Shown: positions 3,418 to 58,655 of the stretch, one piece after another
Numbering within the stretch: the stretch's first letter is position 1
Layout: each line of letters starts with the position of its first letter
Source of the DNA: Tachypleus tridentatus
Taxonomy: Eukaryota > Arthropoda > Merostomata > Xiphosura > Limulidae
DNA: 64,000 nucleotides
NCBI RefSeq assembly: GCF_004210375.1
Contig: NW_027467782.1
Coordinates: 23,725,276 to 23,789,275, forward strand
Reading direction: 5' to 3'
Program-made: the position numbers and the translations under genes
Notes under the pieces: model-generated
What the model was told of the DNA's origin: nothing
The model's database searches: none
The model's input: only the letters and a program-made list of their open reading frames with translations

Positions 3418-3808
3418 TTTGGTTTGTTTGGAATTTCGTGCAATGCTACACGATACTGGTATGGATGTAAGTCTAAAGTAATATATGTAAATAGACTTAG
3501 TGAACACATTGGATGTAAATCTAAAATAATTTCAATAAATAGCCCTAGTGAACACATTGGATGTTAGTCTAAAATAATATAAATAAATAGACTTAGTGAA
3601 CGCATTGGATGTAAGTCTAAAATAATATAAATAAATAACATAGTGAACATATTGGATGTAAGTTTAAAATATTATAAATAAATAACGTAGTGAATACATT
3701 GGATGTAAGTTTAAGATAATATAAATAAATAACGTAGTGAACATATTGGATGTAAGTTTAAAATATTATATATAAATAACGTTGTGAACATATTGGATGT
3801 AAGTTAAA
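3418..3808. repeat. Minisatellite, 47-48-bp unit, 8 copies, next to a SINE tail fragment
   Basis: The core TTGGATGTAAGTCTAAAATAAT recurs at 3463, 3511, 3559, 3607, 3654, 3701, 3748 and 3795. The first unit follows a 35-bp antisense SINE tail piece (GTTTGGAATTTCGTGCAATGC, 3424-3455). Confidence 0.9.
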
Positions 3809-3842
3809 GACGTATAATGGATGGAAAATTAAGCTTTCTTTC

Positions 3843-3945
3843 TTTGTTTGAGATAAAGTTTTCTGCAACCTGTTCACCACGGGTATCGAAATCCGGTTTC
3901 TAGCGCTATAAGTCCGTAGACATTCCGCAGTTCCACTGAGGGGTG
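3843..3945 (-). repeat. Degenerate copy of the second SINE family
   Basis: Recognised by CACGGGTATCGAA, GCGCTATAAGTCCGTAGACAT and CCGCAGTTCCACTGAGGGG in family order, antisense. Confidence 0.6.
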
Positions 3946-3979
3946 AAATTCTACGAATATAGCTTTAAAAATAAGAGAA

Positions 3980-4318
3980 CATTACAGACAATCATATAAC
4001 ATCACGAACAATCATATAACATTACAGACAATCATATACCATTACAAACAATCATATAACATTAGACAATCATATAACATTACAGACAATCATATAACAT
4101 TACAGACAATCATATAACATTACAGACAATTATATAACATTACAATCATATAACATTAGACAACCATATAACATTACAGACAATCATATAACATTACACA
4201 CAATAACATAACATTAGAGACAAATACAACATACAACAGTAACATAGACAATCATATAACATTACAGACAATCATATAACATTACAGACAATCACATAAC
4301 ATTACAGACAATCATGTA
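3980..4318. repeat. Minisatellite, 20-bp unit, about 16 copies
   Basis: The unit is ATTACAGACAATCATATAAC with small indels. It is contiguous, with no spacers. Confidence 0.92.
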
Positions 4319-4540
4319 GATTATATATGAAACAAGGAATAATATGTTTGTTTCTAATGCCTAGAAAAACAAGTTGTTACTGTTAGCCACCATTTGATAT
4401 TACAGGCAGAAAAACAAACTGTTTTTCAAAATACAGAATATGGAAATTAACGGAAAAATATTGAAGACGATACACAGAGAAAGAGTAGATACAGTAAACC
4501 TTGACAGATATAAGATGTTTGGATGTAAAGATAATCATTA

Positions 4541-5627
4541 AGATATAGTGACACATGATGAAGAAATGAAATACATGATGATAAAACTGGTATAAAATAT
4601 ATTGTTTAAAGTTTGAGACAGATATAGTGACACATGATGAAGAAATGAAATACATGATGATAAAACTGGTATAAAATATATTGTTTAAAAGTTTGAGACA
4701 GATGACACATGATGAAGAAATGAAATACATGATGATAAAACTGGTATAAAATATATTGTTTAAAGTTTGAGACAGATATAGTGACACATGATGAAGAAAT
4801 GAAATACATGATGATAAAACTGGTATAAAATATATTGTTTAAAGTTTGAGACAGATATAGTGACACATGATGAAGAAATGAAATACATGATGATAAAACT
4901 GGTATAAAATATATTGTTTAAAGTTTGAGACAGATATAGTGACACATGATGAAGAAATGAAATACATGATGATAAAACTGGTATAAAATATATTGTTTAA
5001 AGTTTGAGACAGGTATACATGATGAAGAAATGAAATACATGATGATAAAACTGGTATAAAATATATTGTTTAAAGTTTGAGACAGGTATAGTGACACATG
5101 ATGAAGAAATGAAATACATGATGATAAAACTGGTATAAAATATATTGTTTAAAGTTTGAGACAGGTATAGTGGCACATGATGAAGAAATGAAATACATGA
5201 TGATAAAACTGGTATAAAATATACTGTTTAAAGTTTGAGACAGGTATAGTGGCACATGATGAAGAAATGAAATACATGATGATAAAACTGGTATAAAATG
5301 ATAAAACTGGTATAATATATACTGTTTAAAGTTTGAGACAGGTATAGTGGCACATGATGAAGAAATGAAATACATGATGATAAAACTGGTATAAAATATA
5401 CTGTTTAATGTTTGAGACAGATTGATGGCACATGAAAAGAAATGAAATTGATGATGATAAAACTGGTATAAAATATACTGTTTAAAGTTTGAGACAGGTA
5501 TAGTGGCACATGATGAAGAAATGAAATACATGATGATAAAACTGGTATAAAATATATTGTTTAAAGTTTGAGACAGGTATAGTGACACATGATGAAGAAA
5601 TGAAATACATGATGGTAAAACTGGTGT
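4541..5627. repeat. Minisatellite, 79-bp unit, about 13-14 copies
   Basis: The unit starts GTGACACATGATGAAGAAATG and includes ACTGGTATAAAATATATTG and GTTTGAGACAG. Starts at 4550, 4629, 4704, 4783, 4862, 4941 and onward show 79-bp spacing with occasional 73-75-bp units. Long minus-strand frames here (up to 193 codons) only translate the repeat. Confidence 0.95.
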
Positions 5628-5887
5628 AAAGTCAGTAGTACGAGTGCACAAATCTTGAACATCTCGTAAAGTTTAATTCGTCAACGTTCTCAATCGATTT
5701 AGTTCTGAAATTTAACACTAATTGTTAAAGACACTTTCTGAAATGTCTCTGAAACAGATAAAATATAACAATAAACAAGATTTAGTGAATATATATTTTA
5801 TATACGTTTTATTTCAGTTGTGGAATATTCGATTTAAAATGTTTCATTACAGTTAGAGTTATAAAACCCATTCAACCGTAACTCATG

Positions 5888-5978
5888 TTGTTGTTTTTTC
5901 AGAGAAAACTACGTTGGGCTGTATGAGGAGAATCGAACCTCGTATATCAGTTTAGACATTTCGCTGTTCCACGTGTAA
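5888..5978 (-). repeat. Degenerate copy of the second SINE family
   Basis: The antisense order AACTACGTTGGGCTGTATG, GAATCGAACCTCG, TTTAGACATTTCGCTGTTCCA matches other family members. Confidence 0.55.
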
Positions 5979-6524
5979 CCTCTAAATCGATCGATTGATC
6001 TCTAATAAGTAGACAGAAACTGTTTAAACAGAGTGTACAATATTCCTTGAGTTTACATCCTCTCGTAACACGCAAGAGAAACAAAATGATAAAATGTTCG
6101 CAGACCTTAACTGAATATTTACATTGGTTACAGTAAATCATTGATGTTTGTTTGTAGAGACGATTCATCATTTGGAAGAATTACAATCACAAAATATATT
6201 TCATTTTATTCTAAATTATAGCCATATATCTATAGTTCAAGTGTTGTGAAATCTAATGTGAATTGTAAATATTCTGTTAAATGTAGTTACAGTATAGGGA
6301 GTTATGTTGTGATTCAGCTATGTTACCTATACATATTCACGCGTTATCAACCGGGAACTGTTCAGTAGTACAAATACACGATTCTTTGTGATATTGTTTA
6401 AAACATAGCATGAAAGTCCTAAGTAACAGGACCTTTAAAAACGTATTGTTTGAAAACCATGTGCACATCATGACTTCATTATTCTTGGCCAATATCTACA
6501 ACGTATTGTTTCAAGCAAGCAAAT

Positions 6525-7130
6525 GCACAATACCAGGTAAAAAGATGTATAGAACGAAGTTAATACACAATACTAGGTAAAGGGATGTATAGAACGAAGT
6601 TAATACACAATACTAGGTGAAGTGATGTATAGAACGAAGTTAATACACAATGCTAGGCAAAGGGATGTAAAGAACGAAGTTAATACACAATACTAGGTAA
6701 AGAGATGTATAGAACAAAGTTAATACACAATGCTAGGTAAAGAGATGTAAGAACGAAGTTAATACACAATACTAGGTAAAGAGATGTATAGAAGTTAATA
6801 CACAATGCTAGGTACACAAAAAGATGTATAGAACGAAGTTAATACGCAGTACTAGGTAAAGAGATGTATAGAACAAAGTTAATACGCAGTACTAGGTAAA
6901 GAGATGTATAGAACAAAGTTAATACACAGTACTAGGTAAAGAGATGTATAGAACGAAGTTAATACACAATACTAGGTAAAGGGATGTATAGAACGAAGTA
7001 TGGTAAGGGGGTGTAGAATGAACTCAGTACACAATACTAGATAAGAGAGTGCAGAATGAAGTTAATACACAATACTAGGTAAGAGAGCGTAGAATAAAGT
7101 TAATACATAGTGTTAGGTGATGGAGTGTAG
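6525..7130. repeat. Minisatellite, 40-bp unit, about 15 copies
   Basis: The unit is TAATACACAATACTAGGTAA plus AGGGATGTATAGAACGAAGT, repeated at 6561, 6601, 6641 and onward. It degenerates after 7000. Confidence 0.93.
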
Positions 7131-7664
7131 AATGTGGTTACAACACTGGATTATGAACAGATTTATGAGGCTTAAGATGTTATCCTTTAAGATTTCCACA
7201 CTACCAGTAGGCACGAATCCATAATGTTAAAGGTTTACTTGTTAATTTCTATCCAATTCGAAATTCACCGTGCAGTTTCACAAGTTATCATTGCAATGAA
7301 ATAGGTGTATTATATTAAAAATCGTCTTAGAACAAATTAATTCTAGTAAGAGATTCCCAAGGTGCGAATGAAAGAAATAATATAAGAAGGTTTTACTCGT
7401 ATTTCTAAATTATATTAGAGAAATGTAATCGAAAGCATTATGAGACCTGAACTGTCTCATGTGATTGCTAAGATAAAAGAAGATATAACTTTATTTCAGA
7501 ATAATATGCCCATGGTAGCAGTAATATAATAGAATGATATGATATTCAACATTATATAATCAAATTACTTAGGCGATCTTGACTGACAGTGTGACGTGTA
7601 CGTTAAATCATCAAATTATTTACGGTATTCTGACAGAAATAACCTTTTACCTTTGTGTGGAAGT

Positions 7665-17064: not shown

Positions 17065-17745
17065 TATCTTTCCACAGAGCAATAAAACATCGAAATAAGA
17101 GCTAGCTTTACCATCCACCAAGGATATCTCACAGCTTCAGGTTTTGAAGCCCAGAGGAATGGCGCTTAAGAACCACTTCAGTTGAACCTTAAGAGAGAGA
17201 GTCGTATTTAAAACCGATTTACGTACTGTATCGATTACATGAAACCGAGAGAAAAATGAAAATATCAGTTATTAATAACAGAAAAATGTGTAATTCTTTA
17301 AACCTGACGATATCTTGATTTAACATCGTAAAAATGTTAATTAAATAAGTACGACATTTCTTGCATTTTTATATTAGATATTGATAATAAAGTATAAAAT
17401 CTGACTTATTCCACTTAAGTAAATTAAGTTTTATTTAATCCCAGAGTAACTTACTTTAAAAGATCGTTACTCACCTTTTGAAAGTATAAAACAAGAATGA
17501 AACTAGTTAATTCAACCTATACAAATCTTTATAAACAATACAGAAGTAAACCAGCTGGTATCTTTAACTTCTATTTACTAGCTTTTACAACACACTCTAC
17601 TAATTAAATTAATCACCTAGACACAGTTAGTTTCACAAGATCTCTCTCAGTTATATAACATAAGTATTTTGCTATGTAATAACTATAGCTATATAGTATG
17701 TAAAAGGGTTTCAGCTCGGTTTTCCTAAGGATACACCTTACTAGA
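17065..17745. repeat. Segmental duplicate of 29595-30115 (membrane exon plus intron)
   Basis: Clear similarity in the same orientation runs from the broken membrane exon through neighbouring intron sequence. Matching landmarks are the shared stretch TTTAAATACGACTCTCT-like in antisense, AATTCTTTAA, and ATGTAATAAC followed by CTATAT. Indels are frequent, so the duplication is old. Confidence 0.6.
17073..17187 (-). pseudogene. Decayed copy of the receptor's membrane exon
   Basis: This aligns with exon 4 of the receptor (29605-29713), including the pyrimidine acceptor (CTCTCTCTTAAG) and about 500 bp of flank. Its end reads LLFRCFIALC against LILMCLTALC in the better copy. It carries indels (115 against 109 nt), in-frame stops, and a donor changed from GT to GA, so it is not functional. 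It shows that at least one further copy of the gene once stood here. Confidence 0.65.
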
Positions 17746-22455: not shown

Positions 22456-23892
22456 TAGACTCAACCACTCATTTGAGAAGAGCTTCCAAAGATGAAAATA
22501 ATAAAAGTGAAAATAAAAAACACAACTTTATTACCATACTCAAACGAAGCGTTAATAGGTAAATACGTAACGAAATTTAATCATTTGTGTTCAAGCATTA
22601 GCGTTCTCAACATCTCCCACTGACATCTCCTGTGTTAGATTGAGGAAAATATATGGCAAAGGCTGAAAACTTGACATAGTGTGAAAGTGGCAGAACTGTC
22701 AAGCTGCTAAAGCAAGGTCTCTCTCAACGTGCCATTGCTGGTGTGATTGAACGTAGTAAAACTACTGTTGCAAATATCTTAAAAGACCTTGACCGGAACG
22801 AGAATTTCAAGTGGTCGACCAAAAAAATTTCGCTTACGTTGAGCACTGGGATTCGACGGTTTATCCAGCAAGACAACACCAGCCAATCGTAGAACCAGAT
22901 TAAGGCCCTATCGGACGCAGAATGCAGCTCAAAAACAATAAGACGGCATTTACAAGAGAAAGGCTTTAGAAAACGTAAACGTGTTCAAAGGCCACGCCTC
23001 CTTCCACACCACAAAACAGCTCTTTTAAACTTTGCTGAGAAGCACCAAACATGGGACGTAGAAAAGTGGACAAATGTTTTGTTCTCTAATGAGAAAAAAT
23101 TTAACCTGGGTGGTCCAGATGGCTTCAAACGTTATTGGCACGACAAGGATATCTCACCGAAGACATTTTCTACACGACACAGTGAAGGAGCTTCCATCAT
23201 GATCTGGGGTTCTTTCTTCTTCCATGAAACAATGGAGCTTCAGGTTATACAAGGGCGTCAAACAGCAGGTGGCGATATTGGCAGTCACCATTATTGACTG
23301 AATACCCTCGCTTGTGTAAAAATGACTGGATCTTTCAGCAGGACAACGTTGAAATCCACAATACCCGCAGGACAAAGGATTTTTTCATGGCGAATAACGC
23401 GTTTCTTTTGGACCATTCAGCGTGTTCGTCCAAACTGAACCCCAATGAAAATGTTTGGGGTGGATGGCAAAGGAAGTCTATAGAAATGAACGTCAATTTC
23501 AAAAGTGCATGATTTTCGTAAAGTCATCTTCACCACTTGGAATAACATTCCAGTCAGCCTTCTGCAAACGTTTCTGTCAATCATGCCAAAGCGAATGTTT
23601 GAAGTTATTCGCAATGACAGCCGTGCAATTCACTACTGAGACCTCTTGTTGGGCATTTTCTATCCTGTTTAGGACTTCTTTTTGGTATGGTCTTAAACAT
23701 TTGACCAGCTAGTATTTAGGCTTATTTCATAGTGTTCACATTTTCCCTATTAAATGCTAAAAATGTTGTGTTTTTTTTCCTTTTCTTATTTCCATCTTTC
23801 GAAGCTCTACTCAAATAAGTGGTTGAGTCTAACAACGCAAAATGCATATTTTTTATTTATGTTCATTGGCCTTAAGATTTTGGCTAGCAGCG
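22456..23892 (+). mobile_element. Tc1-type DNA transposon, left end shortened
   Basis: The right end is complete: antisense of CTGCTAGCCAAAATCTTAAGG at 23892, next to TA. The left end starts inside the terminal repeat (AGACTCAACCACTCATTTGAG) and lacks about 60 bp. Comparison with the end fragment at 60429 shows terminal inverted repeats near 200 bp. Confidence 0.9.
22653..23639 (+). pseudogene. Broken Tc1 transposase
   Basis: An ATG at 22653 opens a paired HTH region (LKQGLSQRAIAGVIERSKTT, VANILKDLDRN). The catalytic part follows with FSNEKKFNLGGPDGFKRYWH, IMIWGSFFF, ELQVIQGRQTA, a DNVEIHN region, SKLNPNENVW and a C-terminus ending SRAIHY. About 329 codons span, near the usual 340. Stops and frameshifts occur in several places (early at MAKAENLT, around the IRRFIQQD region, after 23290 and near 23450). 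The conserved SDEKKF Asp is Asn here. It is inactive. Confidence 0.88.
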
Positions 23893-29278: not shown

Positions 29279-29480
29279 TTAGTATATTAGTTTTGTCTTC
29301 TTAACATTCTTTTCAGAGACCTTCTTCTCACATTCAGGGATCAGTGGCATAGCCTCCAAAATATCCAATTCATCAGTGGTTATCTTTTCATCACCAAGCT
29401 GTTTGTGTTCGACACGGTTTTTCAAAACATTCCGTTCTTCCCGAGGTTTATATTTCCAGGTGTAGAAAAAACAAAGTACG
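29279..29480 (-). CDS. Exon 5: end of membrane helix, cytoplasmic tail, stop
   Basis: After the acceptor ATGCAG the exon completes the helix (VLCFFYTW) and then turns charged at once (KYKPREER), as expected for a stop-transfer sequence and type I topology. It runs 66 residues to a TAA at 29281-29279. The tail is Lys/Glu-rich, holds the acidic dileucine EAMPLI and ends KKTKLIY. No signalling domain is seen. The nearest AATAAA on this strand is about 500 bp downstream, near 28774. Confidence 0.72.
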
Positions 29481-32400
29481 CTGCATGATCATTACAGAAA
29501 ATAAATAAATAAGAATCACGTGTTTCAAGTCCATTAAAATACATATTGTAATTAAATAAGCTATGGATAATGCGTCACAGTTAAAACTTACAGTCGTAAC
29601 TTACCACAAAGCAGTAAGACACATCAAAATGAGTGCTGTTCGCCAAGCACATCTTGGAACTGTAGATTTTGAAGTCAAGTGAAGCGTAGCCTTCGAAACC
29701 ACTTCAATTCGATCTTAAGACAGAGAGTCGTATTTAAAATCAGTTTACGTACTCCACCGGTCACGTAAAACAGAAAAATAAAACTTCAAATGTAAGTTAA
29801 CAATAATAGTAATGTGTATAATTCTTTAAGTTCAACAATAATCTTCATTAACATATTAAAATTTCAATTAAATAAATATGAAATTTCTTACACTTATAAT
29901 ATATTTTCATATTAAACATTGATAACAACCTTTACAATTTGCCAACTGTAAATATACATTTTTTCTTTACACGTTAAACAGATAATTAGCAAAGAAAAAT
30001 GACGCCTGTTATATTATTTGAGCTCCTTACTAGTAGACAAGTAGTACAGTTATGTAATAACAATAACTATATAGTTATATAACATAAAATCAGTCAGGTT
30101 TTCCAACATATTTACATTAATAGACAATACAACAAGAAACCTACTGACTTTCCCTGCCAAACACACGTGATCACACTATACAAGAAAAATCTAGACATTT
30201 TCTTTACGATAATGTACATATTATACAACTCAGTATAACACAGTGAGTTAAATCAACTTAGATTCATTAAAACTGTAAAGATGTATAACACAAATTAAAC
30301 AAACTGTCTTTCCATTGACTACTTAATAAAGTCAGTTTGTTTAATGGGTATTCACTTACTGTGTTAAGTTTTATAATTAACAGCTTCACTTATTATGGTG
30401 CATAATTATATTTTACTATAGAATCGTATCCACTGAATGGTAGTTTCTGCGTCTTTACAACACTATTAAAACAGTAATTTTACAAATTTCTCTTTACTCT
30501 AAATTTCCCAGATAAATAACGATACCATTTTGACTACAAACACTGAACGTCGTACGTCACTGCTCATGAAGTTTTTCGTTTACTTGGTAACAATTCTTTC
30601 TAATAGTTTTATTGAGTACTCATGAGACACTGCTAACGTTTTGATAATCCAATGTTGTTATAATCGTATTTTAAAACATTTGTTTTGTATTTGGACAAAT
30701 TACTGTATTTTATTACAAAAAACGACATTATGCACACAAAATAAACATATTAAACATAGATTTGGGACATACACTGTTTTAGTTAAATATCTTTACGTCT
30801 TTTTAGTAATAATGTGACGCACACAGATGTGATATTGAGACACCGTTATATTTGTTTGTTTTTCAATTCCGCGGATAGCTGAACGAGGACTTTCAGCGCT
30901 AGCCGTTCCTAATTTTGAAATGATATACTGGAGGTAAGACAGCTATTCAATACTATTTGTCGTAAATGTTTGAGCTCATCTTTAAAAACGAGTAGTAGGA
31001 TTTCCAAGTAAAAGCAAAGTTTTTTAATGCATTAAAAACCATGAAAGTTATGAAGAAGTATCGTATTATAACAATCTGCATGAACAAAAATAAACATTTT
31101 TAAAATGTTAAGGAAACAATAAAAGAAAACTTTAAAACCCTTTTGTTCCATTACTTCTACAAAGATCTTTATTATCAGCTCCTTCTTCATCAGTAATTTC
31201 GTCATCAGGACAAGGTATACAGGCGTCACCAGCAAAAAGATGCCATGTAAGTCCCTCCTGGACACGGCAGGCAGTGAGTTTGGAATCCATTGTCATAGTG
31301 ACCAGGAGGACATGGATCTAAAAGCGTTAAAAGTACAAAACTAAACATTTATTTACCCAGTGTTAATTTTATTGTTCTAACAACGTCTTTAGTATCAAAA
31401 AACATATGTGTTGAACTAAAATTCCATATTTTTAAAAGTCTTTCATCTATTTGTGTTTAATGTGAACAGTTTAAAGTAATTGAGTATCATATATACTTAC
31501 AACACCTGTTAACATCTCTTTGGTATCCACGAGTACAGTTGAGATTCTCGGCTGGAACATACACTGGAGAAAACAACAGAGAGTTAATATTTTTATTAGC
31601 ACGTTTTGTGTCACCGTTGGAATTTTAAGGTTTTTCACAATAATATTAAAAATAAATAATGTTGTAAAATAACAACATTAATGTTACTTTTCGTGAGAAA
31701 AATAAAACGTGTCAAAACAGTTTCTTAACAGTAGACTTTTGTTTCTTTATGTACTTCCTAATGGAGTTAACTAATGAAACTAATCACACAAACTTGGAAG
31801 TTTATGAAATTACACACGATCTTTTTTTTATGTTTTTCTATAGGTACATTTGATTTCCGTTGGTGTTTCCCTTGCAAAATTCTTATTTGTCACAGTTAAA
31901 CGTTGAACTGTTGTTATTGTTTATGTTAATATCAGTTATGAAAATACAGGTTATTTTGGGAATATTACGTTCGTAAAATGTATCAGTGTATGATTGTGTC
32001 TTGCAAACAACAAAATATCAAATAATATCCTTATAATGCAGAAATTGGATGAAATGCATTCCGAGAAAATTTTTCATTTAAATTTAATATAAAACCAAAT
32101 CCTTAATTTTTTGCGGATTTATCAAGATAAATAATATAGCGATCTAACACCTTTCACTGTAAATTTATAGTATTGTTTATTCAAAATACGTTCTCAAAAA
32201 ACTTCGTAGATATGATTTGTATCTTTAGAGTACAAAAGATTTTGCTTCAACATTCACAAGTTGAGTTCATTATATCAAAATAACTTTGGAGCCTCATCAC
32301 TTCTCTCTACAGGTTTACCATAATCCATCTAGTCTCTGATCACATAGAAATCTATAATTCTTACATCAGTGAGGTGACTGGTGTGTCTGTGTGTACAATA

Positions 32401-35400
32401 ACATGCATATCTATCTAATTACTCAGCGGTTAGAAGACTGAGATATTTTTTTACGTACCATCGCCTGGGACACTTCAGCGGTTTTTATCTCTGACATTTG
32501 TGTTCGTACGACTTGTTGTAGGTCTTTTCCGAATTATTCTGGCAAACCAAAATTATTTCTTCGATGCTCTTACGTACAATAAATATCTTTGTTTCGAAAA
32601 ATTTAAATTCTCATTTGAATATATTTTCATGATATGGGCATATAAAAATTTACATTGGAAAGGTCTGTTACATACCTTTCCCAAAAGCTACCAATTTTCG
32701 GTTACATCACACCATTTAAGAAATGTTATATCAGATTGAGTCACATTATATGACAGGTTGCATATTCAAAACTGTTTTGATATGGCTTACTAATCCCTAT
32801 AAACTATAAAGTATTATTGCTATGAACATCAGTGGCAGCCTCTGACTAATACTGTATGTTTATTACAGGAGTACCGATAAGATTACGCATTCGTCTTCAT
32901 CACTGCCCTGAAATAACTCTTTTCAGGGCATCTTTAGCATCAACTAATGGAATGTGATACATCTTCCAAGAGTATATTATGGCTGTCAATATCAACATCT
33001 GCACCTTGGAGTTGGACAATATCACCCATTACTGGAGTCCTGATTAGATGGATCAGTATATGGACGAACAAAGAGTGTAGTATTGATGGTAACATTTAAA
33101 GTAATTATATGTGGATATGTTTACCAATACTTATTCATACCACACTCCAACATCGACATTTCCTATCATTAAAATTAAGAAAAACTGATTTCATGTTATC
33201 TCTAAAGTAATAATTCCTTGTAAGTACTTTTAACATTATTGTAATAATCTATTTCATGCATTTATATTTCTGAGGAACCCACTTGAAGCTAATAAATTTT
33301 GCAGACGTTCTACAATGGGTAATTTAAAACTTTTTATTACAGAATTCATATATAGTTCGATGTTTCTAGGTTATAAAGCGACTAGGAAGGAGATTTGAGA
33401 TAACGGTGATATAGAGAAACCTCAGTCAACAACACGATACCCACCCTGTCAATAACCCCAAATACAATAAACAAAATACTTAAATTCTTGTAAAAAAAAT
33501 AAAGCAAATACAATACTAATGTCATTTATAAAATACTTTATGGCAACTTCCACGTATTTTACGTCAGAGAAACAAGCCCGAAACTCAAAACAACATTCAT
33601 GTAACACAAAAAAAATAGAATTTCACGTTTTTAAATTTAACACTGCAACTCAAATAAATATACTACAGGTAACATTTAAATTCCAAACAGAGAATCCAAC
33701 ATCATTAGACGATAAACCAAATAATTCCTTGTAATACAAGAGCAAACACACATTAAACCAATATAAAGAAACACTTTTATATCTATATTAATAAAATTTA
33801 ATAAATCTTGTTCGATGTATTATAGTTTGAAGATGATACTTTTAATTTTCAAGATTTTATAATTTACAAAATATTCTGAGAATACTAAGAGTAATGCAGA
33901 TAGTATTAATAGGAAATTACACGAAGGTTGTTAAAACTATAATATGAAAATAAGACAGTTCAATTTTCATTACAATTAAATGATATAAAAGATAACGTAT
34001 CGTTTTATGAACGAAATCGATAAAAACACAATTTAATTAACGTAGATGGGAGTATTTTAAAATTCCTATCTGGTGCAGTAACAACAGTTTGATCAACAGA
34101 GACAATTCTATAAAGAAATTATTTACTTTGTAGGTGAAAAAGGGCCCGGCATGGCCAAGCGCGTAAGGCGCGCGAATCGTAATCCGAGGGTCCGAGTTCG
34201 CGCCCGCGTCGCGCCAAACATGCTCACACTTTCAGCCTGGGGGTGTTATAATGTGACGGTCAATCCCACTTTTCGTTGGTAAAAGAGTAACCCAAGAGTT
34301 GGCGGTGGGTGGTGATGACTAGCTGCCTTCCCTCTAGTCTTACACTGCTAAATTACGGACGGCTAGCACAGATAGCCCTCGAGTAGCTTTGTGCGAAATT
34401 CCAAAACAAACAAACAAATTGAAGGTGAACAAACGAATAATATGAATTATTTGAATCAACCAACTGAAAACCATGATTAGAAAAGTCTTCAGATCATTGG
34501 TAAGTATCACTAATATATCAATTCATAGAGAAAAACAAAATAAAATATACAAAACAAGAGCTGAGATGTTAGTTTTCAAAGACAAAATTCAGAATAATTG
34601 ACAGTAGTTAGCTTTTACAGTGGAAAACAGTAGATCGGAGTTAGCTATGTTAGTACAAGCGCTGTATGTGACCGCAAATAGAAAGTTAAGTTCTTGCTTT
34701 CTACTCTAAGTAAGCTATCAAATCTATTAAGCAAAAGATTACCTCACACTTATAGTTTGTGGCCCCTACACATAGTTATCAGATTTTCATTTATTACACG
34801 TGGACTGACATTACTACAGCTACAATTAGAGGTACCTTGAAAATGTTTGAATAAATTGAAAAGAAATACACTTATTATAGCTGTAATAATATCAGTCCAC
34901 GTGTAATACATGAAAATCTGACAACTATATGTAGGGACCACAAACTGTAAGTATGAGGTAATCTTCTTTCACTTTTGTCTAATATATTTGATAGCTTACT
35001 TGGAGTAGAAAGCAAGAACTTAACTTTCTAATTAACTGTAGAGAATGAAAAGCTTTTCGAATGATCAAGCACACATAGTTTTTCTTATAACAAAACCACA
35101 TCGGGCTATTTACTGTGTCCACCGAGGGCAATCGAACTCCTGATCTTAGCGTTGTAAATCCATAGACTTACCGCTGTCCCATCGGGAGACTATTTCATTA
35201 AAACAATAACTCCATGAACATAGTTATTTAATGTTAAGTGTTAACTGATTTTATCTGTTGTCAGTCCAAAACTGGTTGCTTATCAGTTCGATTATAAGAC
35301 TATAATCGTAAAGTTTTTTAATTAATGATTAAATGGTACAATAGATTATATTACACGTTTTAAGCTGTGAGTTTTGTTTCTATTTTTCTCTGTAAATATG

Positions 35401-36645
35401 CACTCTACTTAAACTAAAGACATACTTATACGACTTGGATTTAAATTTATTCATAAAGAATGTGAAAAACAACGTATTTGCGAGTCATTTGAAAATACTG
35501 AACCACAAGAATAATAGAATCAATTTAAAAGAAAACACCAGTTTTAATAAATGAAGTTTTAATTAAAATTCCTTTTAACCAAAGATTTGTTATATTTTTT
35601 TAAATTACGATGGTTTGTTTGTTTTGAATTACGCTCAAAACTACACGAGGGCTATCTGCGCTAGCCGTCCCTAATTTAGCAGTGTAAGACTAGAGGGAAG
35701 GCAGCTAGTCATCACCACCCACCGCAAACTCTTGGGCTACTCTTTTACCAACGAAAAGTGGGATTGACCGTCACATTATAACACCCCCAGGCTGAAAGTG
35801 TGAGCATGTTTGGCGCGACGGAGATGCGAACCCGCGACGCTGAAATTACGAGTCGCACGCCTTAACACGCTTGGCCATGCCGGATCCTGACAGCATCTGA
35901 ATCAATATTTACATGTATTTATACTAAATTTATACAAAAATATTTAGAAATACTTTTTCGAGATTTGCGACTGTAATATAAATCCCTTTCACGTATCAGC
36001 CCTCAAATATATTCTACCATCATGTTTTCGTTATACACGCTCCCAAGTCACAAGAGCAAAGTTTGAAGACAATAGGCCTTTTCCATTTACTTTAGGCATA
36101 AGCAATCAGAAAATAACATTTTTTGCCCAGGAACATGAAAAGGTAAAAAATTTTCTTACATAGTGTAATCTTACGTATACGCAGGCAATTAATTTTTAAA
36201 TCAATACACATGGTGTGTGAAATATCAAACGAAAAGGTTATGGCTGAAAGAAATTTAAAAGCAAGATGGACGATATCAATTTAGATGCTATTTCTGTTAA
36301 ATTAGTACAGTTTAATAAATGAAAATATGGTCTAAAAAAAAACACCATGAATTTACCTCTGACATCATGTTTGTAATCACCTTCACGATTTTTGCATGTG
36401 TAAATTCCCGCGTCTTCAAATTGGATGTGGGTTAGCACTAATTTGCCACCGTATTTTATTTGCGTTCTCTCACTATTAATAACTTTTTCTTTGAGATTTG
36501 AGTACCAAATAACTGGTTCTTCTCTCGCTTGGTTTGAACATATTAATGTAAGAGTAGAACCACGTTCAATTTCGTAGACGAATGTAAAACCTGAAACAAG
36601 CAGGAAACTAGCGAAAATATAAAATAATTGAGTGTAATTAGCCAT
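29279..36645 (-). CDS. Putative type I membrane receptor: signal peptide, one Ig domain, GCC2/GCC3-type Cys domain, TM, short tail (5 exons)
   Basis: Five exons on the minus strand join into about 274 codons: 36645-36357, 31563-31501, 31317-31155, 29713-29605 and 29480-29279. Every intron is GT-AG, and junction phases agree (1, 1, 1, 2). The order is signal peptide (1-19), V-like Ig domain (about 25-96), Cys-rich repeats of CPxGxY/CxPCP type (about 106-171), Ser/Thr-rich stalk, one hydrophobic helix (about 197-216) and a basic/acidic tail (217-274). Expected role is a cell-surface receptor or adhesion protein; the ligand is unknown. The tail has no kinase, TIR or YxxL motif but has the acidic dileucine EAMPLI (250-255), which usually directs endocytosis or lysosomal sorting. 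Odd point: exon 3 is 163 nt where 162 is needed; the surplus base lies in a T5 run and shifts the frame. It is therefore a recent pseudogene or an assembly indel. Ig plus GCC2/GCC3 plus TM is not a family I can name. Further exons could have been missed in the long first intron. Confidence 0.72.
29595..30115. repeat. Segmental duplicate of 17065-17745
   Basis: This is the better-kept partner: it includes functional-looking exon 4 of the receptor and part of the preceding intron. See the entry at 17065. Confidence 0.6.
29605..29713 (-). CDS. Exon 4: stalk and first half of the membrane helix
   Basis: The acceptor follows CTCTCTGTCTTAAG and the donor is GTAAGTTA. The exon has 109 nt, phase 1 in and phase 2 out. 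It encodes a Ser/Thr-rich stalk (SKATLHLTSKST) and then a hydrophobic run TALILMCLTALC that is completed by exon 5. A homologous but broken exon lies at 17073-17187, and the intron flanks are similar too, which supports this being a real exon of a duplicated gene. Confidence 0.72.
30116..31154. other. Intron 3 of the receptor gene, with an antisense SINE fragment
   Basis: 30853-30960 is an old antisense SINE (GAGGACTTTCAGCGCTAGCCGTTCC, then GGAGGTAAGACAGCTA). The rest is AT-rich intron sequence. Confidence 0.6.
31155..31317 (-). CDS. Exon 3: GCC2/GCC3-like cysteine repeats, one surplus base
   Basis: The acceptor is TTTTAG and the donor GTAATGG. The first half reads YPCPPGHYDNG...CLPCPGGTY and the second half reads GDACIPCPDDE...DLCR, the C-x-x-CP-x-G-x-Y pattern of GCC2/GCC3 domains (SCUBE, SVEP1 and Eph-type cysteine domains). 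The halves lie in different frames. The exon is 163 nt and the surplus base is in the T5 run near 31222-31226. With one T fewer the spacing between GTY and the next Cys is eight residues, as in the family. Either this copy has a frameshift mutation or a homopolymer was miscounted. Confidence 0.75.
31501..31563 (-). CDS. Exon 2: start of GCC2/GCC3-like Cys domain
   Basis: A pyrimidine-rich acceptor ending CCAG lies just upstream and a consensus donor GTAAGTAT just downstream. The exon has 63 nt, phase 1 in and out, and encodes 21 residues including NLNCTRGYQRD and a final Cys. NCT is a possible N-glycosylation site. The C-x-x-G-Y spacing is that of the repeats found in ephrin-receptor-like cysteine domains and continues without break into exon 3. 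Confidence 0.75.
32455..33855. repeat. About 1.4-kb segmental duplicate, partner at 10730-12185
   Basis: This lies inside intron 1 of the receptor gene. On the minus strand, near 32870-33060, broken frames give IIYSWKMYHIPLVDAKDAL and FQGSDEDECVILSVL, which align with the trace in the partner. The origin of that coding trace is not recognised; it could be a lost exon or a decayed mobile element. Confidence 0.7.
33856..34142. other. Intron 1 sequence, nothing recognised
   Basis: AT-rich, between the duplicated segment and a SINE. Confidence 0.5.
34143..34418 (+). repeat. tRNA-derived SINE, young
   Basis: Full head GGCCCGGCATGGCCAAGCGC, body and ACAAACAAACAAA tail. The target duplication TTGTAGGTGAAAAA-like stands at 34128-34142 and again at 34419-34433. 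Confidence 0.92.
34679..35030. mobile_element. Foldback (long inverted repeat) element inserted at TA
   Basis: Two arms of about 145-160 bp (34681-34830 and 34870-35028) are reverse complements with few differences. The outer ends are GAAAGTTAAGTTCTTGC and its complement, flanked by TA on both sides. The spacer is about 40-60 bp. No coding sequence. It fits a non-autonomous MITE. Confidence 0.85.
35085..35192 (-). repeat. Well-kept copy of the second SINE family
   Basis: TATAACAAAACCACATCGGGC, CCACCGAGGGCAATCGAACTCC, GCGTTGTAAATCCATAGAC and CCGCTGTCCCATCGGG: the best antisense example of the family in this window. Confidence 0.8.
35617..35887 (-). repeat. tRNA-derived SINE, full length, antisense
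   Basis: The tail (GTTTGTTTTGAATTACGC) comes first and GGCCATGCCGGATCC last, with the complete body between. Confidence 0.92.
36357..36645 (-). CDS. Exon 1: signal peptide and V-like Ig domain
   Basis: The ATG at 36645 opens MANYTQLFYIFASFLLVSG, a typical secretory signal. The Ig fold follows: B-strand Cys36, Trp47 in VIWY, and the F-strand motif DAGIYTC with Cys84. The spacing fits a V- or I-set domain. The exon ends after one base of codon 97 at a GTAAAT donor (36356-36351). The frame is also open upstream of this ATG to 36768, but the signal peptide fixes the likelier start. An acceptor-like CAG just before the Ig part (about 36593) leaves open that the signal peptide sits in an alternative exon. 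The Ig resembles receptor first domains (PVR/VEGFR-like style), but no family is claimed. Confidence 0.8.
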
Positions 36646-50395: not shown

Positions 50396-51632
50396 TGAGG
50401 TCATTCAATAAGTAATATCATTTTAACACTAAGATTTAAAAGGAAGAAAAATAACTCAAATAACAACTTTAATCAATTACATATTTTTCATCTCTTCTCA
50501 ATAACAGTCTGGAAATGTATCAAAATATTTTCAATATCACACTTATAAAAATCAAGTTGTTTTGAAATATAAAAGGTACAAGAGTTACTTTTTAACAAAT
50601 CATAGAAGTAAACTGTTTTTCATTCAGATGACGTGAATGAAAATATCATAATCTGAAGGAGCAAGATCAGGAGAATGGAGAAGTTTCTTCCAGCTAAGCT
50701 GTTCAATTTTTTTAAAAGTGACCCTAGCGATGTTAGGATGTGCATTGTTATGGTGGAAAACAACTCCTTTCTGATTTACCAAAGCAGGTATCTTTTATTT
50801 ATTTTTTAGTGCAGCATTCAGTTAATCCAGTTTCTGCCAGTGTCTCTCAGCAGTTATTGTGTGATCTGTTTGTAACAACTCAAAGAGTATTACACCACCT
50901 GAAGTACAGGTTCACTTTTGACTGTGGTGTAGCTGGTTCTACTGCATTAACCCACTGTTGGCAGTGCATGACATTTTGATAGAGTATCCATTTCTTATCT
51001 CCAGTCACTAAATAGGTGGTTCAAAAATGAAGCTTGAAGTTCATGAAAGTGAAGAGATGTGCAGATGTCTACTCATTCTTTCTGATTATAAGCTGACAAC
51101 TCATGTGTTACCCATTTTCCAAACTTTAAAACTCTACCAAGTTGCAAATGTTGATGGACAATGGAAGGAGATGAATTAAGTTTCTGGGCTAATTTTTCAA
51201 CAGTTACAGCACAATCTTTCTCAAGTGTTGCTAGAAGCAGGTCATTATTGAACTCAACAGGGCTCTCAATGCGAGCTGCATCCGTCAAACTGTAGTCACC
51301 AGTTTTAAACTTATGGAACCATCTTTGACACTTCCCTACATTCAGAATGTCATTGTTGTACACATCTTGAATGGTTCTTCAGTAGAACTCTTTCATTTTC
51401 TGAAGTTGTAAAACATTATATTCCTTATGTGCTCTTCTGATACCTCCATGATAATTGGGGCTTCTAAAATAAATAAAACAAAAATTAGTAAAAAAACAAA
51501 TTGGTTTACTCTGAATGTTATTATTTCATCCCATATAACTTGTGTGACTTTGAGAATAACTTCATTTAGCCAAAAAATATGCATTTAAATTTATCCTATC
51601 CCAAAAAATGACATTACTTATGGGATGACCTA
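50396..51632 (-). mobile_element. mariner DNA transposon with both terminal repeats, inactive
   Basis: The ends GAGGTCATTCAATAAGTAAT (left) and the antisense of ATTACTTATGGGATGACCTA (right) form inverted repeats of about 27 bp. The length of 1.24 kb is normal for mariner. Confidence 0.88.
50430..51463 (-). pseudogene. Broken mariner transposase
   Basis: It starts MEVSEEHIRNIMFYNFRK (51463 downward). The DNA-binding part follows in another frame (KCQRWFHKFKTGDYSLTDAA, EKDCAVTVEKLAQKLNSSPS, LGRVLKFGKWVTHEL). The catalytic part has VTGDKKWILYQN, matching TGDEKW with the first Asp kept. At least one stop after NFRK and later stops and shifts break it. The end near the second catalytic region (HHNNAHPN, SPDLAPSDY) is still recognisable. 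Confidence 0.85.
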
Positions 51633-55290: not shown

Positions 55291-56080
55291 ATTGGGACAT
55301 CAGTTCTTTTATTCTATGATCTTAACACAAGTTAATTTTCCTGCAACATTTATATTCAATGTACTATTATCTCTTCATCATCCTACATATTTCTCCTTTA
55401 TCTGAATCATTCTTTCCTCCTCAAAACAATAGTAGCTAGTGAGGATAACTCATTGATCTACCTTCCTTCCATTAGTAACCTTTATCACATGTCTGATCCG
55501 TAAAGACTGTGTCCTACATGTGATCTTCAATGTTTCATTGCTCACACAACTGTCATCTGTAGTGCTTGTTCCCCTCTCTTTATACCTTGGCAACTATTCT
55601 GTTTGTGATATTTCTCATTTCAGCTTCACCAATGGGGACAGGGCTTTTGATTCAGTTGGTTTATTTGTCTCTTTTTGTTGTCGTCCTGTACTTTTTGTTT
55701 CATATTTATTCTCATCATATTTGATGTCTTACCTTTTCTCTTGTATTTCATCTTTATCATCCTCTGGAAGAACTTCTTCAACTGCACTAGTTGACTACTT
55801 CTAATACATTCGTCTCTCGCTGTTTGTATAGTATCACCATTTCATCCTCATTGGGCTGTCTTCTTTGATGTGTAGCCACTCTTCGAATTTCCATGTGACT
55901 TTGGCTAGGTAAGTTATTTTTTATTATTATTAAATTTTTCAGGGGCCTTATTTTCCTTTTGATGGTAATTACTTGTTGTTATTAATGTTATTGCATCTTT
56001 TGAACTTGAAGTGTAGACATTTTGCTCCTCACCCTATCACTGTATGGATGTTAGTTCCCAGTAACATGGGTTTTGGATGT
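55291..56080. other. No gene recognised
   Basis: Continues the moderately G+C-rich stretch. A 94-codon plus frame at 55520-55804 is hydrophobic and Ser-rich without a domain; the minus strand shows basic broken frames. Confidence 0.35.
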
Positions 56081-56411
56081 ACAGTAAACTCTCATTGTAA
56101 CAAAGTCGTAGGGACCAAAGAGAATTGTTCGTTACAAAAGAAGTTCGTTAAAAAGGATTTTTTTTTCATTCACTAGCCAAGTCTGGTAATGGTAGACCCT
56201 ATAACTGACGGCTGGTGCAGTACCGGTAATTGGATTAAAGACTCAGAAGTCACACGTGTGTAAACACTTAAAACACATTTAATGAATTTCAAAAGGACAA
56301 TTAACAGCACTTGTAAAAAAAAAAAGCATGTAAAAAAATAACATTCATAATATAGACATATGTAATTATAATGTACAGGATACAAACACCAGCAAGAACG
56401 TCTAACTGGAG

Positions 56412-58073
56412 TCACTTGAAATATTGCACAATGCTTTTTTGCGAACTGCTGTCCCTCTGGCACTTGGTCACAAAACGCTCCATCATGTTTAATTGAGAGA
56501 TAAACTGTCCTGCGTTAGCCTGGTGTTCAAGATATCTCTGAAGTTGCAGGCACATCTCACGAGCTGCAGAATGTGTTGGGATGGGGGGTTCCTCATTGTC
56601 GTCATCTTCACTGTCATTTTCTGGTGTCTGTTTATTTTGCACCATGGCCACAATATAACTGTCTGTCAGGGGTGCGCTAGTGATCAGATCATTATCAGCA
56701 GTCTCGTAGTCCTCTGCTGTGCCATCCACCGTAAACCCAGTGTCATTCAGCCGTGTCAAGAGCTGGTCCAATGGTATGTCATCCTCGGGGGTCCTCACTG
56801 TTTTCTGCTGGCTCTGGAGAGGAGAAGCCACAAGTTCTGAAGCAATTGGCTATGGTTGATTGCTTTACCAATGACCAGGCAGAGCGTAGCAGTCGCATGG
56901 CTTCAAGCACAGTCACAGTGAAAACACTTTTATTGTCTATTGAATCAATAAGACGCTGTAGCAGTAGGGTGCGGTAATGATGTTTTAGATTGGCGATGAT
57001 GCCTTGGTCCATGGGCTGTGTCTTGCTTGTGGTATTGGGAGGCAGGAACACCAGCTTGATGGCCTTAAGTCCAGTGGGGTTGGAGTGGGCGGGGCAGTTG
57101 TCAATTATCATAAGGACCTTTCTTTTCTGCAGCACAAACTTTCGGTCAAGTTCTCTCAGCCACTCGGTGAATATATCTGATGTCATCCAAGCTCGCTTGT
57201 TGGCTTTGTATGGTGTTGGCAGGGTTTTGACATCTTTGAAGCAACGCGGTTTTGCTGCCTTTCCTAAAAAAAAAAAGAAAGAAAATGTACATGGTTAATG
57301 TCTTGAAATTAAAAATGAAACATTTACAAGTCAATAATCTGAAGAAAATCATAAAATAACAACTTCTATAGAAAACACAGGAAAGTATTTTTACCTGCTT
57401 TTGACACTCACCTGTGACAAGTAAAGGAAGCTTCTCGGTGCCGTCCATATTGGCGCATACCAAAACAGACAGCCGCTCCTTCGCTCGCTTCCCGCCGTGA
57501 CAGGAGTCTCCCTTGATAACAAGAGACTTGTCTGGCAGAAGTTTAAACAATAAGCCAGACTCATCTGCGTTGAAGACATCCCGTGGGCTGTAGTTTTCTA
57601 GCAGGCGTGGCAGTGCTGTTGATGTCCACTGGTTTGTTTGCTCTGGTTCTACACTACCAGACTCACCACAGATCGTATGAAATTGAATGTCGTGTCTTTT
57701 TTTTTAATCAGGTTAACCAACCATCACTCATGCAAATGTCAGTGATTCCCATTTGATCAGCAAGTTTTTTTGCCTTTGCTTGCATAACAGGCCCAGAGAT
57801 AGGAACATTCTCTGATCTGGCATTTTTGAACCACAGAAGCAATGCCGCTTCTAGGTCAGAATGTTTTGCAGTTCGCATGCATTTTCTATTGGGACAAAAG
57901 TTGTCTCGAGAAGATAATATGGCCTCTTTATTTTTCAACCATGCTGACAAAGTGTTCAGAGGCACATCAAATGCTTTTGCTATTTCTGTTTTTGTTTTAA
58001 CTTTTTTTTCAACTTCTTCTATTGCTGCAATTTTAGTTTCTATCGATACAAGCTTGTGCTTCGCCATGATCAA
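56412..58073 (-). pseudogene. Tigger transposase (CENP-B-type), two small breaks and one probable intron
   Basis: The start is MIMAKHKLVSIETKIAAIEE (58073). The HTH regions KTEIAKAFDVPLNTLSAWLK and NVPISGPVMQAKAKKLADQM lead to SDGWL. The DDE_1 domain follows with RDVFNADESGLLFKLLPDKS, CHGGKRAKERLSVLVCANMD, LMIIDNCPAHSN, LVFLPPNTTSKTQPMDQGII and NLKHHY; all three acidic residues are present. A C-terminal acidic region (TPENDSEDDDNEEPPIP) ends SIVQYFK. The frame breaks twice, once at the A9 run near 57700 and once at the C5 run near 56785. A sequence from GTGAGTGT (57413) to a T-rich AG (57266) behaves as an intron: removing it gives VTGKAAKPRCFK, the family consensus. It is inactive as read, but little damaged. 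Confidence 0.88.
57266..57413 (-). other. Probable spliceosomal intron inside the Tigger transposase
   Basis: The donor is ACAG|GTGAGTG and the acceptor TTTCTTTTTTTTTTAG|GAAAGG. The 148-bp insert is AT-rich and has a pyrimidine tract, and splicing restores the conserved VxGKxxxPRCFK block in frame. Read through, the insert adds a hydrophobic non-conserved stretch. Confidence 0.7.
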
Positions 58074-58655
58074 TGATTAATGATCTGTTTAAGTTGACTG
58101 TGATTAGCCTTTATAGGCCACAGCATGCAGGCTGCCCAGGCATAATCTACTCAAGCCATAATCTGAAAATTTTATATCTAAGCTAATTTTTTGCTGGGAA
58201 GGCGGGTGAGTTGGGGCGGGCAGGGGTTTAAAGTGTTATTGACTATAATTGTTGTAAAAACATTGCTAGGCTAATCTACTACTCCATCTGCAGTCCGCTA
58301 TTTCTCAAGTGTAAGATTTTGATGGTGGCACCACACATTGTTGCGCGGAGACTGACTAATTGCACTTGCTAGCGGCGTAGCGGGTGGTCGGCAGCCGTGA
58401 CAATTAATTTAGGGAAGAAGAGAAAAATAAATATCTTTGTACCTGGTTTGATACAAAGGATGTAATATTGATGCTTTTCACACCCTAGGGACTATAATTA
58501 TACATCGTTACAAGCCGACACTTCGATACATGCAGTTCGGTTCAAGGGGTTTTTGTTACTATGTATTTATATGGACAGTTGGCCGGACCAGTCAGCAACT
58601 TCGATACAAGTGATATATTCGTTTCTAGCGACTTTGAAACAATGAGTTTACTGTA

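What the first reader, a model, noticed from the sequence alone, without database searches (positions are those of the whole stretch)
29279..36645. Compact Ig + GCC2/GCC3 cysteine + TM receptor with no named family
Five exons found by reading both sequence and splice sites give one phase-consistent protein: signal peptide, one V-like Ig, cysteine repeats of ephrin-receptor type, membrane helix, short tail. Seen: Cys/Trp/DxGxYxC of the Ig, repeated CPxGxY and CxPCP, hydrophobic helix split by an intron. Known: these domains occur in surface receptors. Inferred: the combination and small size may mark an undescribed chelicerate receptor family.
Basis: partly seen in the sequence, partly recalled or inferred. 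Interest (0 to 1): 0.8.

Follow-up and report, generated by a model that had tools for sequence, protein, structure and literature searches.

The report
Broken copy of large Ig-receptor family
This stretch of a horseshoe crab genome holds one damaged copy of a cell-surface receptor gene that exists in roughly two hundred copies, some of them intact, whose outer and inner parts appear to have been swapped between copies during evolution.

Summary
The five exons, their order and their splice sites are real, but the window copy is not one open protein: exon 3 carries a frame break that stops translation before the membrane helix. Siblings show what the gene is. It belongs to a large dispersed family in a horseshoe crab genome (probably Tachypleus tridentatus). 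An exon-3 pattern occurs 231 times, two Ig-exon types 118 and 51 times, two tail types 91 and 113 times; reversed-pattern controls gave 0. Of 20 copies examined, 11 are open through helix into tail and 9, window included, are disabled. Intact siblings pass Pfam cut-offs for Ig_3/I-set and Ephrin_rec_like. Ig side and tail side do not share one history: held-together clades are rejected (p-AU 1.6e-4 and 6e-6), and Ig exons only 75% identical in DNA sit upstream of exon 3 sequences 98% identical. Best reading: a segmentally duplicated, recombining family of single-Ig surface recognition receptors, with the window copy a pseudogene. Expression, ligand and presence outside this genome were not testable. 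Immune function is inference. No description of the family appeared in the listings of nine open-library paper searches.

The parts
36357..36645 (-). Exon 1: signal peptide and single Ig_3/I-set immunoglobulin domain (type g1)
   Evidence: Open frame of 96 codons plus one base, GT donor; Pfam Ig_3 4.4e-9, I-set 6.6e-8; identical 96-residue protein at 4 genome places including the window; 118 places with the g1 pattern at up to 2 mismatches
31501..31563 (-). Exon 2: start of the cysteine-rich part (YVPAENLNCTRGYQRDVNRC)
   Evidence: AG/GT borders, phase consistent; found in 19 of 20 fetched copies, not in L030
31155..31317 (-). Exon 3: Ephrin_rec_like (GCC2/GCC3) module, carrying the frame break of this copy
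   Evidence: Two frames needed to read it; in frame in 19 of 19 other fetched copies that hold it and in 4 of 4 exon-3 copies tied to g2 Ig; 231 genome places by pattern at up to 3 mismatches
31236..31240 (-). Run of T around which the reading frame breaks
   Evidence: First-frame match ends at 31238, second-frame match begins at 31236; the exact 19-base string with five T is at 4 places: window, C19:18513498, C19:23998254, C5:59038495
29605..29713 (-). Exon 4, type A: linker and most of the membrane helix
   Evidence: AG/GT borders; type A in 7 of 20 copies, window included; strongest hydrophobic segment in siblings L029 and L035 is TALILMCLTALCVLCFFYT, encoded by exons 4 and 5
29279..29480 (-). 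Exon 5, type A: end of the helix and cytoplasmic tail
   Evidence: AG acceptor and stop in the frame of the second half of exon 3; 91 genome places with the tail-A pattern at up to 3 mismatches; tail shorter than in L032, L035 and L046
17088..17159 (-). Decayed remnant of a type-B membrane-helix exon from another family member
   Evidence: 71% identity over 24 residues to the type-B exon 4, E 1e-9; frame shifts and stops around it

Best explanation
The window holds a broken copy (pseudogene) of a large horseshoe crab gene family. Intact members encode single-pass membrane proteins: signal peptide, one I-set-type Ig domain, one Ephrin_rec_like cysteine module, a membrane helix and a cytoplasmic tail of type A or B. 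SHOWN: the exon set and its order, the multicopy state, two Ig types and two tail types, open frames in 11 of 20 copies examined, and mosaic histories between the 5' (Ig) and 3' (tail) modules. INFERRED: copies multiply by segmental duplication of long stretches and exchange segments by unequal recombination or gene conversion, so that different outer recognition heads are joined to different inner tails. INFERRED: the Ig binds a ligand at the cell surface, the disulphide-rich module is a stiff stalk, and the tail, in which no kinase or other domain was found, works through adaptor or co-receptor binding. The most likely setting is immune or self/non-self recognition on haemocytes or epithelia (about 0.35 for this last step alone).
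For: Exons, junctions and the frame break. Copies. Colinearity: 76 of 100 listed g1 Ig exons have a tail exon within 14 kb downstream on the same strand, 2 of 100 upstream; for g2, 11 of 51 and 1 of 51. Open siblings: 11 of 20. Pfam on siblings L033 (first 358 residues) and L035: Ephrin_rec_like 4.4e-9 and 4.9e-10, Ig_3 about 3.5e-8. Helix. Across 32 Ig exons of both types C36, W51, G84 and Y86 of the Ig core are invariant. Variants within types favour synonymous changes: 69 synonymous to 130 nonsynonymous, omega 0.63, p 0.002 (exons 1-4). Mosaicism: identity profiles; short and long Ig each with type-A and type-B 3' exons, all four combinations seen; AU rejection of one tail-A clade on the 5' tree (1.6e-4) and of one long-Ig clade on the exon 2-3 tree (6e-6); exon 1 of L029 and L067 74.6% identical in DNA while exon 3 of L035 and of L063, the latter 4 kb from L067, is 98.1%. 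Long duplicated flanks, main blocks 92-99%.
Against: No transcript evidence was available. Nine of 20 copies are disabled. Exons are not more conserved than introns over the family as a whole: 5.6% coding against 4.2% non-coding substitutions relative to L029, the coding figure raised by the A/B difference in exons 4-5. Each exon's omega taken alone is at best weakly below 1, and exon 4A is 1.11. The second Ig cysteine is lost in 2 of 12 g2 exons (L061, L068). No known signalling motif was identified in the tails, and no ligand or cell type is known. Part of the tree signal may come from insertions caught in the aligned blocks (long branches L035, L042, L046). For g2 most copies (40 of 51) have no listed tail downstream.
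Confidence: 0.6

Rival explanations
1. The family is largely a passenger: an old receptor gene caught in a spreading network of segmental duplications, with one or a few working source genes and nearly all other copies inert, the window's included.
For: Dispersed on many contigs with strong excess on one 69.8 Mb contig, 45 of 100 listed g1 Ig exons against 3.2 expected by length; long flanks duplicated too; 9 of 20 copies disabled; coding substitution rate not below non-coding.
Against: 11 of 20 copies still open; pooled omega 0.63, p 0.002; Ig core residues C36, W51, G84 and Y86 invariant across two deeply split Ig types.
Confidence: 0.27
2. An amplified family on a special chromosome (C19 as a sex-linked or otherwise recombination-poor unit), acting in gamete or mate recognition rather than immunity.
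For: C19 holds 45 of 100 listed g1 Ig, 41 of 100 listed tail B and 19 of 91 tail A, with about 3 expected each; near-identical copies megabases apart on C19.
Against: Nothing here identifies C19 as sex-linked; none of the 20 titles listed (of 26 papers) is about horseshoe crab sex chromosomes, and these papers were not read for it; more than half of the listed copies lie on other contigs.
Confidence: 0.07
3. The window copy is a working gene and the frame break is an assembly error in a T run.
For: The break lies in a homopolymer run; the other exons of the window copy are open in a consistent frame; the near-identical sibling L031 lacks it.
Against: The same string with five T is present at 3 further places, two of them on C19 with the same preceding bases, which fits an inherited change; disabled copies are common in the family.
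Confidence: 0.06

Closest known systems
Chelicerate shortened Dscams (sDscam alpha/beta/gamma), PMC5775551, passages seen
   Same: Chelicerate-expanded Ig surface proteins with a membrane helix and cytoplasmic part, diversified through their N-terminal Ig
   Different: sDscams have three Ig domains and FNIII repeats, and alpha/beta have tandem 5' cassettes; here there is one Ig, no FNIII hit, an Ephrin_rec_like module, and dispersed gene copies each with their own downstream exons
Eph receptors (Ephrin_rec_like / GCC2-GCC3 module)
   Same: Share the cysteine module; weak sequence match to Ephrin type-B receptor 2 (E 0.08)
   Different: No ephrin-binding domain, FNIII or kinase hit
ELAPOR1-type proteins and other GCC2/GCC3 proteins (SCUBE, SVEP1; these two recalled)
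   Same: Cysteine module of the same kind; TNFR_ELAPOR1_6th matched below its cut-off; ELAPOR1 chain at E 0.09
   Different: No Ig domain and a larger multi-module ectodomain in those (recalled)
ApLRRTK of Aplysia, PMC4200351, passages seen
   Same: GCC2_GCC3 region in the ectodomain of a single-pass receptor
   Different: LRR motifs rather than Ig outside, tyrosine kinase inside
Large invertebrate immune gene families such as sea urchin 185/333 (PMC1988830, search listing only) and snail FREPs (recalled)
   Same: Large families of similar, diversified genes
   Different: Different domains; those are recalled as secreted effectors, this is a predicted membrane receptor

Membership tests
Immunoglobulin superfamily, I-set/Ig_3 | Ig domain above the Pfam gathering cut-off | tested here: met
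   Window exon 1: Ig_3 37.2 bits (cut-off 30), I-set 32.9 (23.7); two siblings alike
Immunoglobulin superfamily, V-set | V-set score above cut-off | tested here: not met
   22.6 bits for exon 1 and 19.2-19.8 bits for two siblings, against a cut-off of 26
Ephrin_rec_like (GCC2/GCC3) module | PF07699 score above cut-off | tested here: met
   Intact siblings 36.4 and 39.5 bits, cut-off 23.1; of the window's pieces on either side of the frame break the first gives 23.6, just over, and the second 18.0-18.6, below
Single-pass type I membrane protein | N-terminal hydrophobic leader and one internal hydrophobic helix followed by basic residues | tested here: met
   Hydropathy on three siblings: leader from residue 8, helix from 197-199, then KYKPREER or NKKARGK; in L033 a third hydrophobic stretch near residue 384 lies where the true end of the exon is unsure; no dedicated predictor and no experiment
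Eph receptor | Ephrin-binding domain, FNIII repeats and tyrosine kinase | tested here: not met
   None found in two sibling proteins, L033 to residue 358 and L035 whole
Chelicerate sDscam | Three Ig plus FNIII repeats; tandem 5' Ig cassettes in alpha and beta | tested here: not met
   One Ig, no FNIII hit; Ig exons lie kilobases upstream of their own exon 3 and tail
Expressed receptor family | Spliced transcripts across exons 1-5 | not testable with these tools
   No RNA-seq held
Chelicerate-wide family | Homologues with the same domain order in other chelicerates | not testable with these tools
   No other animal genomes searchable; a viral-contig scan found no relative

The most novel reading that the evidence does not exclude
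Horseshoe crabs carry an undescribed germline repertoire of a couple of hundred single-Ig surface receptor genes in which recombination between dispersed copies joins different Ig heads and different tails to a near-constant cysteine stalk: a modular recognition system separate from Dscam, FREPs and lectins, used for immune or self/non-self recognition.
Probability: 0.25. Interest if true: 0.8.

Novelty: new variant of a known kind. Interest (0 to 1): 0.52.

Why it matters
Horseshoe crabs rely on innate immunity alone, and the recognition families surveyed in the T. [quoted passage not shown] A family of some 200 Ig receptor genes, about half of the 20 sampled copies intact, with heads and tails exchanged between copies, would be a new receptor repertoire in an ancient arthropod lineage. 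It would also be a natural test of how much diversity segmental duplication and conversion can make without somatic rearrangement. If it is instead mostly inert, it is a clear case of receptor genes carried along by a duplication network. RNA-seq data would help decide between the two.

Tried and rejected
Rejected: a lone compact receptor gene (the window copy is broken and one of many); a V-type Ig (V-set below cut-off); an Eph receptor or sDscam (features not met); viral cargo (in a scan of viral contigs 2 stretches matched a pattern and neither encodes a relative; flanks are duplicated genomic DNA). Led nowhere: the single-sequence fold of exon 1 gave mean pLDDT 50.9 and was not used for a fold search; NCBIfam gave no family; nine paper searches listed no description of the family (the library holds open-licence papers only, and searches listed 20 of 25, 12 of 112 and 10 of 451 papers); the sex-chromosome search did not identify C19. 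Strong positive selection on the Ig was considered: between the two Ig types the ratio is 0.62 in the Ig part and 2.28 in the first 20 columns, the signal peptide; the latter rests on very few sites and is not claimed. The first version of that count included three bad rows (L024, L025, L026, five-codon scraps, two of them from the wrong strand) and was redone without them. In one search exon 3 of L029 was taken one base too long, and short A/B misalignments add to its counts of frame-shifting indels, so those counts are not used. Splice dinucleotides were canonical in 159 of 159 cases, but exon ends had been located with the help of those sites, so this is not an independent test; the equal exon lengths are the better evidence.

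Full report
WHAT WAS CHECKED. The window is bases 23725276-23789275 of contig C19 of a 2.17 Gb genome in 205 contigs. The genome encodes coagulogen (PF02035), and the coagulogen exon peptides fetched differ at one aligned residue of 162 from the coagulogen of PDB entry 1aoc. 1aoc is recalled as Tachypleus tridentatus, so the source is a horseshoe crab and probably that species.

THE OBSERVATION. The joined reading nevertheless stops after residue 147, because exon 3 can only be read in two frames. The 19 other fetched copies that hold exon 3 are in frame at that point, and so are 4 of 4 exon-3 copies tied to the second Ig type. The exact 19-base string with the five-T run is found at 4 places genome-wide: the window, two other C19 places with the same preceding bases, and one on C5. 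That pattern favours an inherited change over an assembly slip, although recurrent homopolymer error is not excluded and the near-identical sibling L031 lacks it. The window tail also ends early compared with L032, L035 and L046. The window copy is therefore best called a pseudogene of an otherwise real gene.

THE FAMILY. The Ig exon found 150 places by protein search, 150 being the number of candidates scored out of 388. Pattern counts, which the tool gives whole, are 231 exon-3 places, 118 Ig exons of the first type (g1), 51 of the second type (g2), 91 tail-A and 113 tail-B exons, at 2 or 3 mismatches allowed; each reversed-pattern control gave 0. Order is kept: of the 100 listed g1 exons (of 118), 76 have a tail exon within 14 kb downstream on the same strand (40 A, 36 B) and 2 have one upstream; of 51 g2 exons, 11 have tail A downstream, none has a listed tail B, 40 have no listed tail, and 1 has a tail upstream. 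Zero-mismatch exon 3 lies within 12 kb downstream of 37 of 100 g1 and 17 of 51 g2 exons, against 4 and 2 upstream. Tail-B places were listed only to 100 of 113 and exon-3 places only to 100 of 231, so these are lower bounds.

INTACT AND BROKEN COPIES. Twenty 10-kb copies were fetched. L030 shows only the Ig side within its stretch. Of the remaining 19 plus the window, 11 are open through the membrane helix and into the tail (L029, L032, L033, L034, L035, L036, L037, L041, L045, L046, L047; L036 and L047 run to the end of the fetched stretch). Nine are disabled: window in exon 3; L044 in exon 1; L039, L040 and L043 in exon 4; L031, L038, L042 and L048 in exon 5. Exon 5 of L043 was outside its fetched stretch. 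The copies were chosen mostly among the closest matches, so this ratio is not a genome-wide estimate.

WHAT THE PROTEIN IS. Sibling proteins L033 (first 358 residues) and L035 pass Pfam cut-offs for Ephrin_rec_like (4.4e-9, 4.9e-10) and Ig_3 (about 3.5e-8), with I-set next and V-set below its cut-off. Nearest solved relatives by sequence are contactin-1, NCAM2, contactin-2 and Robo2 for the Ig (2.9e-11 to 6.7e-7), and a mastigoneme-like protein, thyroglobulin and, weakly, TNFR superfamily member 9 for the cysteine part. One strong internal hydrophobic segment follows, then basic residues and a tail. The two tail types differ at many positions but share a block KI(T/S)xxELDILEA; type B has a 12-residue insert, with YTKL in 5 of the 6 aligned and YTKR in L047. 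No kinase or other domain was found in the tails.

MODULAR HISTORY. Identity to L029 along the gene changes in blocks: L048 is 91.0-96.5% in 500-base bins up to 6 kb and 95.8-98.8% beyond, while L033 and L034 are 98-100% over the first 5 kb and fall to 87-88% before a different tail. Short and long Ig variants each occur with type-A and type-B 3' exons. On a tree of the Ig block the tail-A copies are rejected as one clade (p-AU 1.6e-4); on a tree of the exon 2-3 block the long-Ig copies are rejected as one clade (p-AU 6e-6). Few inner branches of these trees are well supported (4 of 16 and 2 of 17 starred). The g1 and g2 Ig exons are 74.6% identical in DNA and 53.8% in protein (L029 against L067), yet exon 3 of g1-type copy L035 and exon 3 located 4 kb from L067 (L063) are 98.1% identical; other cross pairs are 93-96%. 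Exchange between copies, by unequal crossing-over or gene conversion, is the simplest cause; which of the two was not tested.

SELECTION. Counting each variant once over exons 1-4, 69 synonymous and 130 nonsynonymous changes give omega 0.63 (p 0.002 against neutrality, variants treated as independent). Single exons range from 0.36 to 1.11, and only exon 4B reaches p below 0.05 alone. Against L029, coding substitutions are 5.6% and non-coding 4.2%; indels are 3.4 and 6.0 per kb. Pairwise ratios within g1 and g2 are 0.52 and 0.49, and between them 0.62 in the Ig part. This is weak constraint: it fits a mixture of working and dead copies and does not prove that many copies work.

SURROUNDINGS. 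The flanks are duplicated as well; only the best candidates were scored in these searches. Main blocks match 38-50 kb at 92-99% (12 candidates scored), 16.5-28 kb at 94-97% (3 scored), including C9:124616-124625 kb next to a family member on C9, and 50-64 kb at 92-99% (15 scored). C19 is 3.2% of the genome but holds 45 of 100 listed g1 Ig exons, 41 of 100 listed tail B, 28 of 100 listed exon 3, 19 of 91 tail A and 10 of 51 g2 Ig exons. A decayed type-B helix exon lies at 17088-17159 of the window.

INTERPRETATION. The best-supported account is a segmentally duplicated, recombining family of single-Ig surface receptors, with the window copy dead. That these proteins sit on the cell surface follows from leader plus helix. 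That the Ig recognises a ligand and the tail recruits partners is inference from domain knowledge. That the setting is immune or self-recognition is a guess by analogy with other large invertebrate families. The main rival is that nearly all copies are inert passengers of duplication.

LITERATURE. In the main text of the T. tridentatus genome paper (PMC7011531, passages) the words immunoglobulin and ephrin do not occur; it reports 117 Dscams and 42 FREPs, and whether some of those 117 are this family could not be checked. In the mangrove horseshoe crab paper (PMC7210998, passages) neither word occurs. A review of invertebrate Ig proteins (PMC11999971, word search only) has no occurrence of horseshoe, Limulus, ephrin or GCC2. 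Nine searches listed no description of the family; the library is open-licence only and several listings were cut.

Noticed in passing
window 56080-58655: A 2.6 kb DNA transposon with CENP-B_N, HTH_Tnp_Tc5 and DDE_1 domains spread over several reading frames; 95-97% identical stretches at 8 further places.
   Followed up: partly
window 22893-23294 and 51076-51378: Fragments of Tc3-type (HTH_Tnp_Tc3_2) and Mos1-type (HTH_48) transposases.
   Followed up: partly
L069-L073 (C8:46378500, C12:33711830, C10:109571870, C8:91824160, C3:66897520): A second multicopy Ephrin_rec_like exon family (VPCPPGQFRSKKQEECVPCPKDHYSDYFGSYKC...), related to but distinct from exon 3. Whether it too has an Ig exon upstream is unknown.
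   Followed up: partly
genome-wide, exon 3 against Ig counts: 231 exon-3 places but only 169 Ig exons matching the g1 or g2 pattern, so some 60 copies may carry a further or more diverged Ig exon or have lost theirs.
   Followed up: no
contig C19 (69.8 Mb): About fourteen-fold excess of g1 Ig exons on one contig (45 of 100 listed); the nature of C19 is unknown.
   Followed up: partly
L029-L048, first bases of the intron after exon 3: Reading through the exon-3 donor gives a short end SN(G/E)TKGF then stop in 17 of 19 fetched copies in frame there, which could give a secreted form by intron retention; untested.
   Followed up: no
window 3462-7133: Dense minisatellite arrays with periods of about 20 to 310 bases.
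   Followed up: no
C7:19216972-20544518 and C11:42928882-42964722: Further coagulogen-like (PF02035) exons outside the main coagulogen locus on C11 near 9.0 Mb.
   Followed up: no
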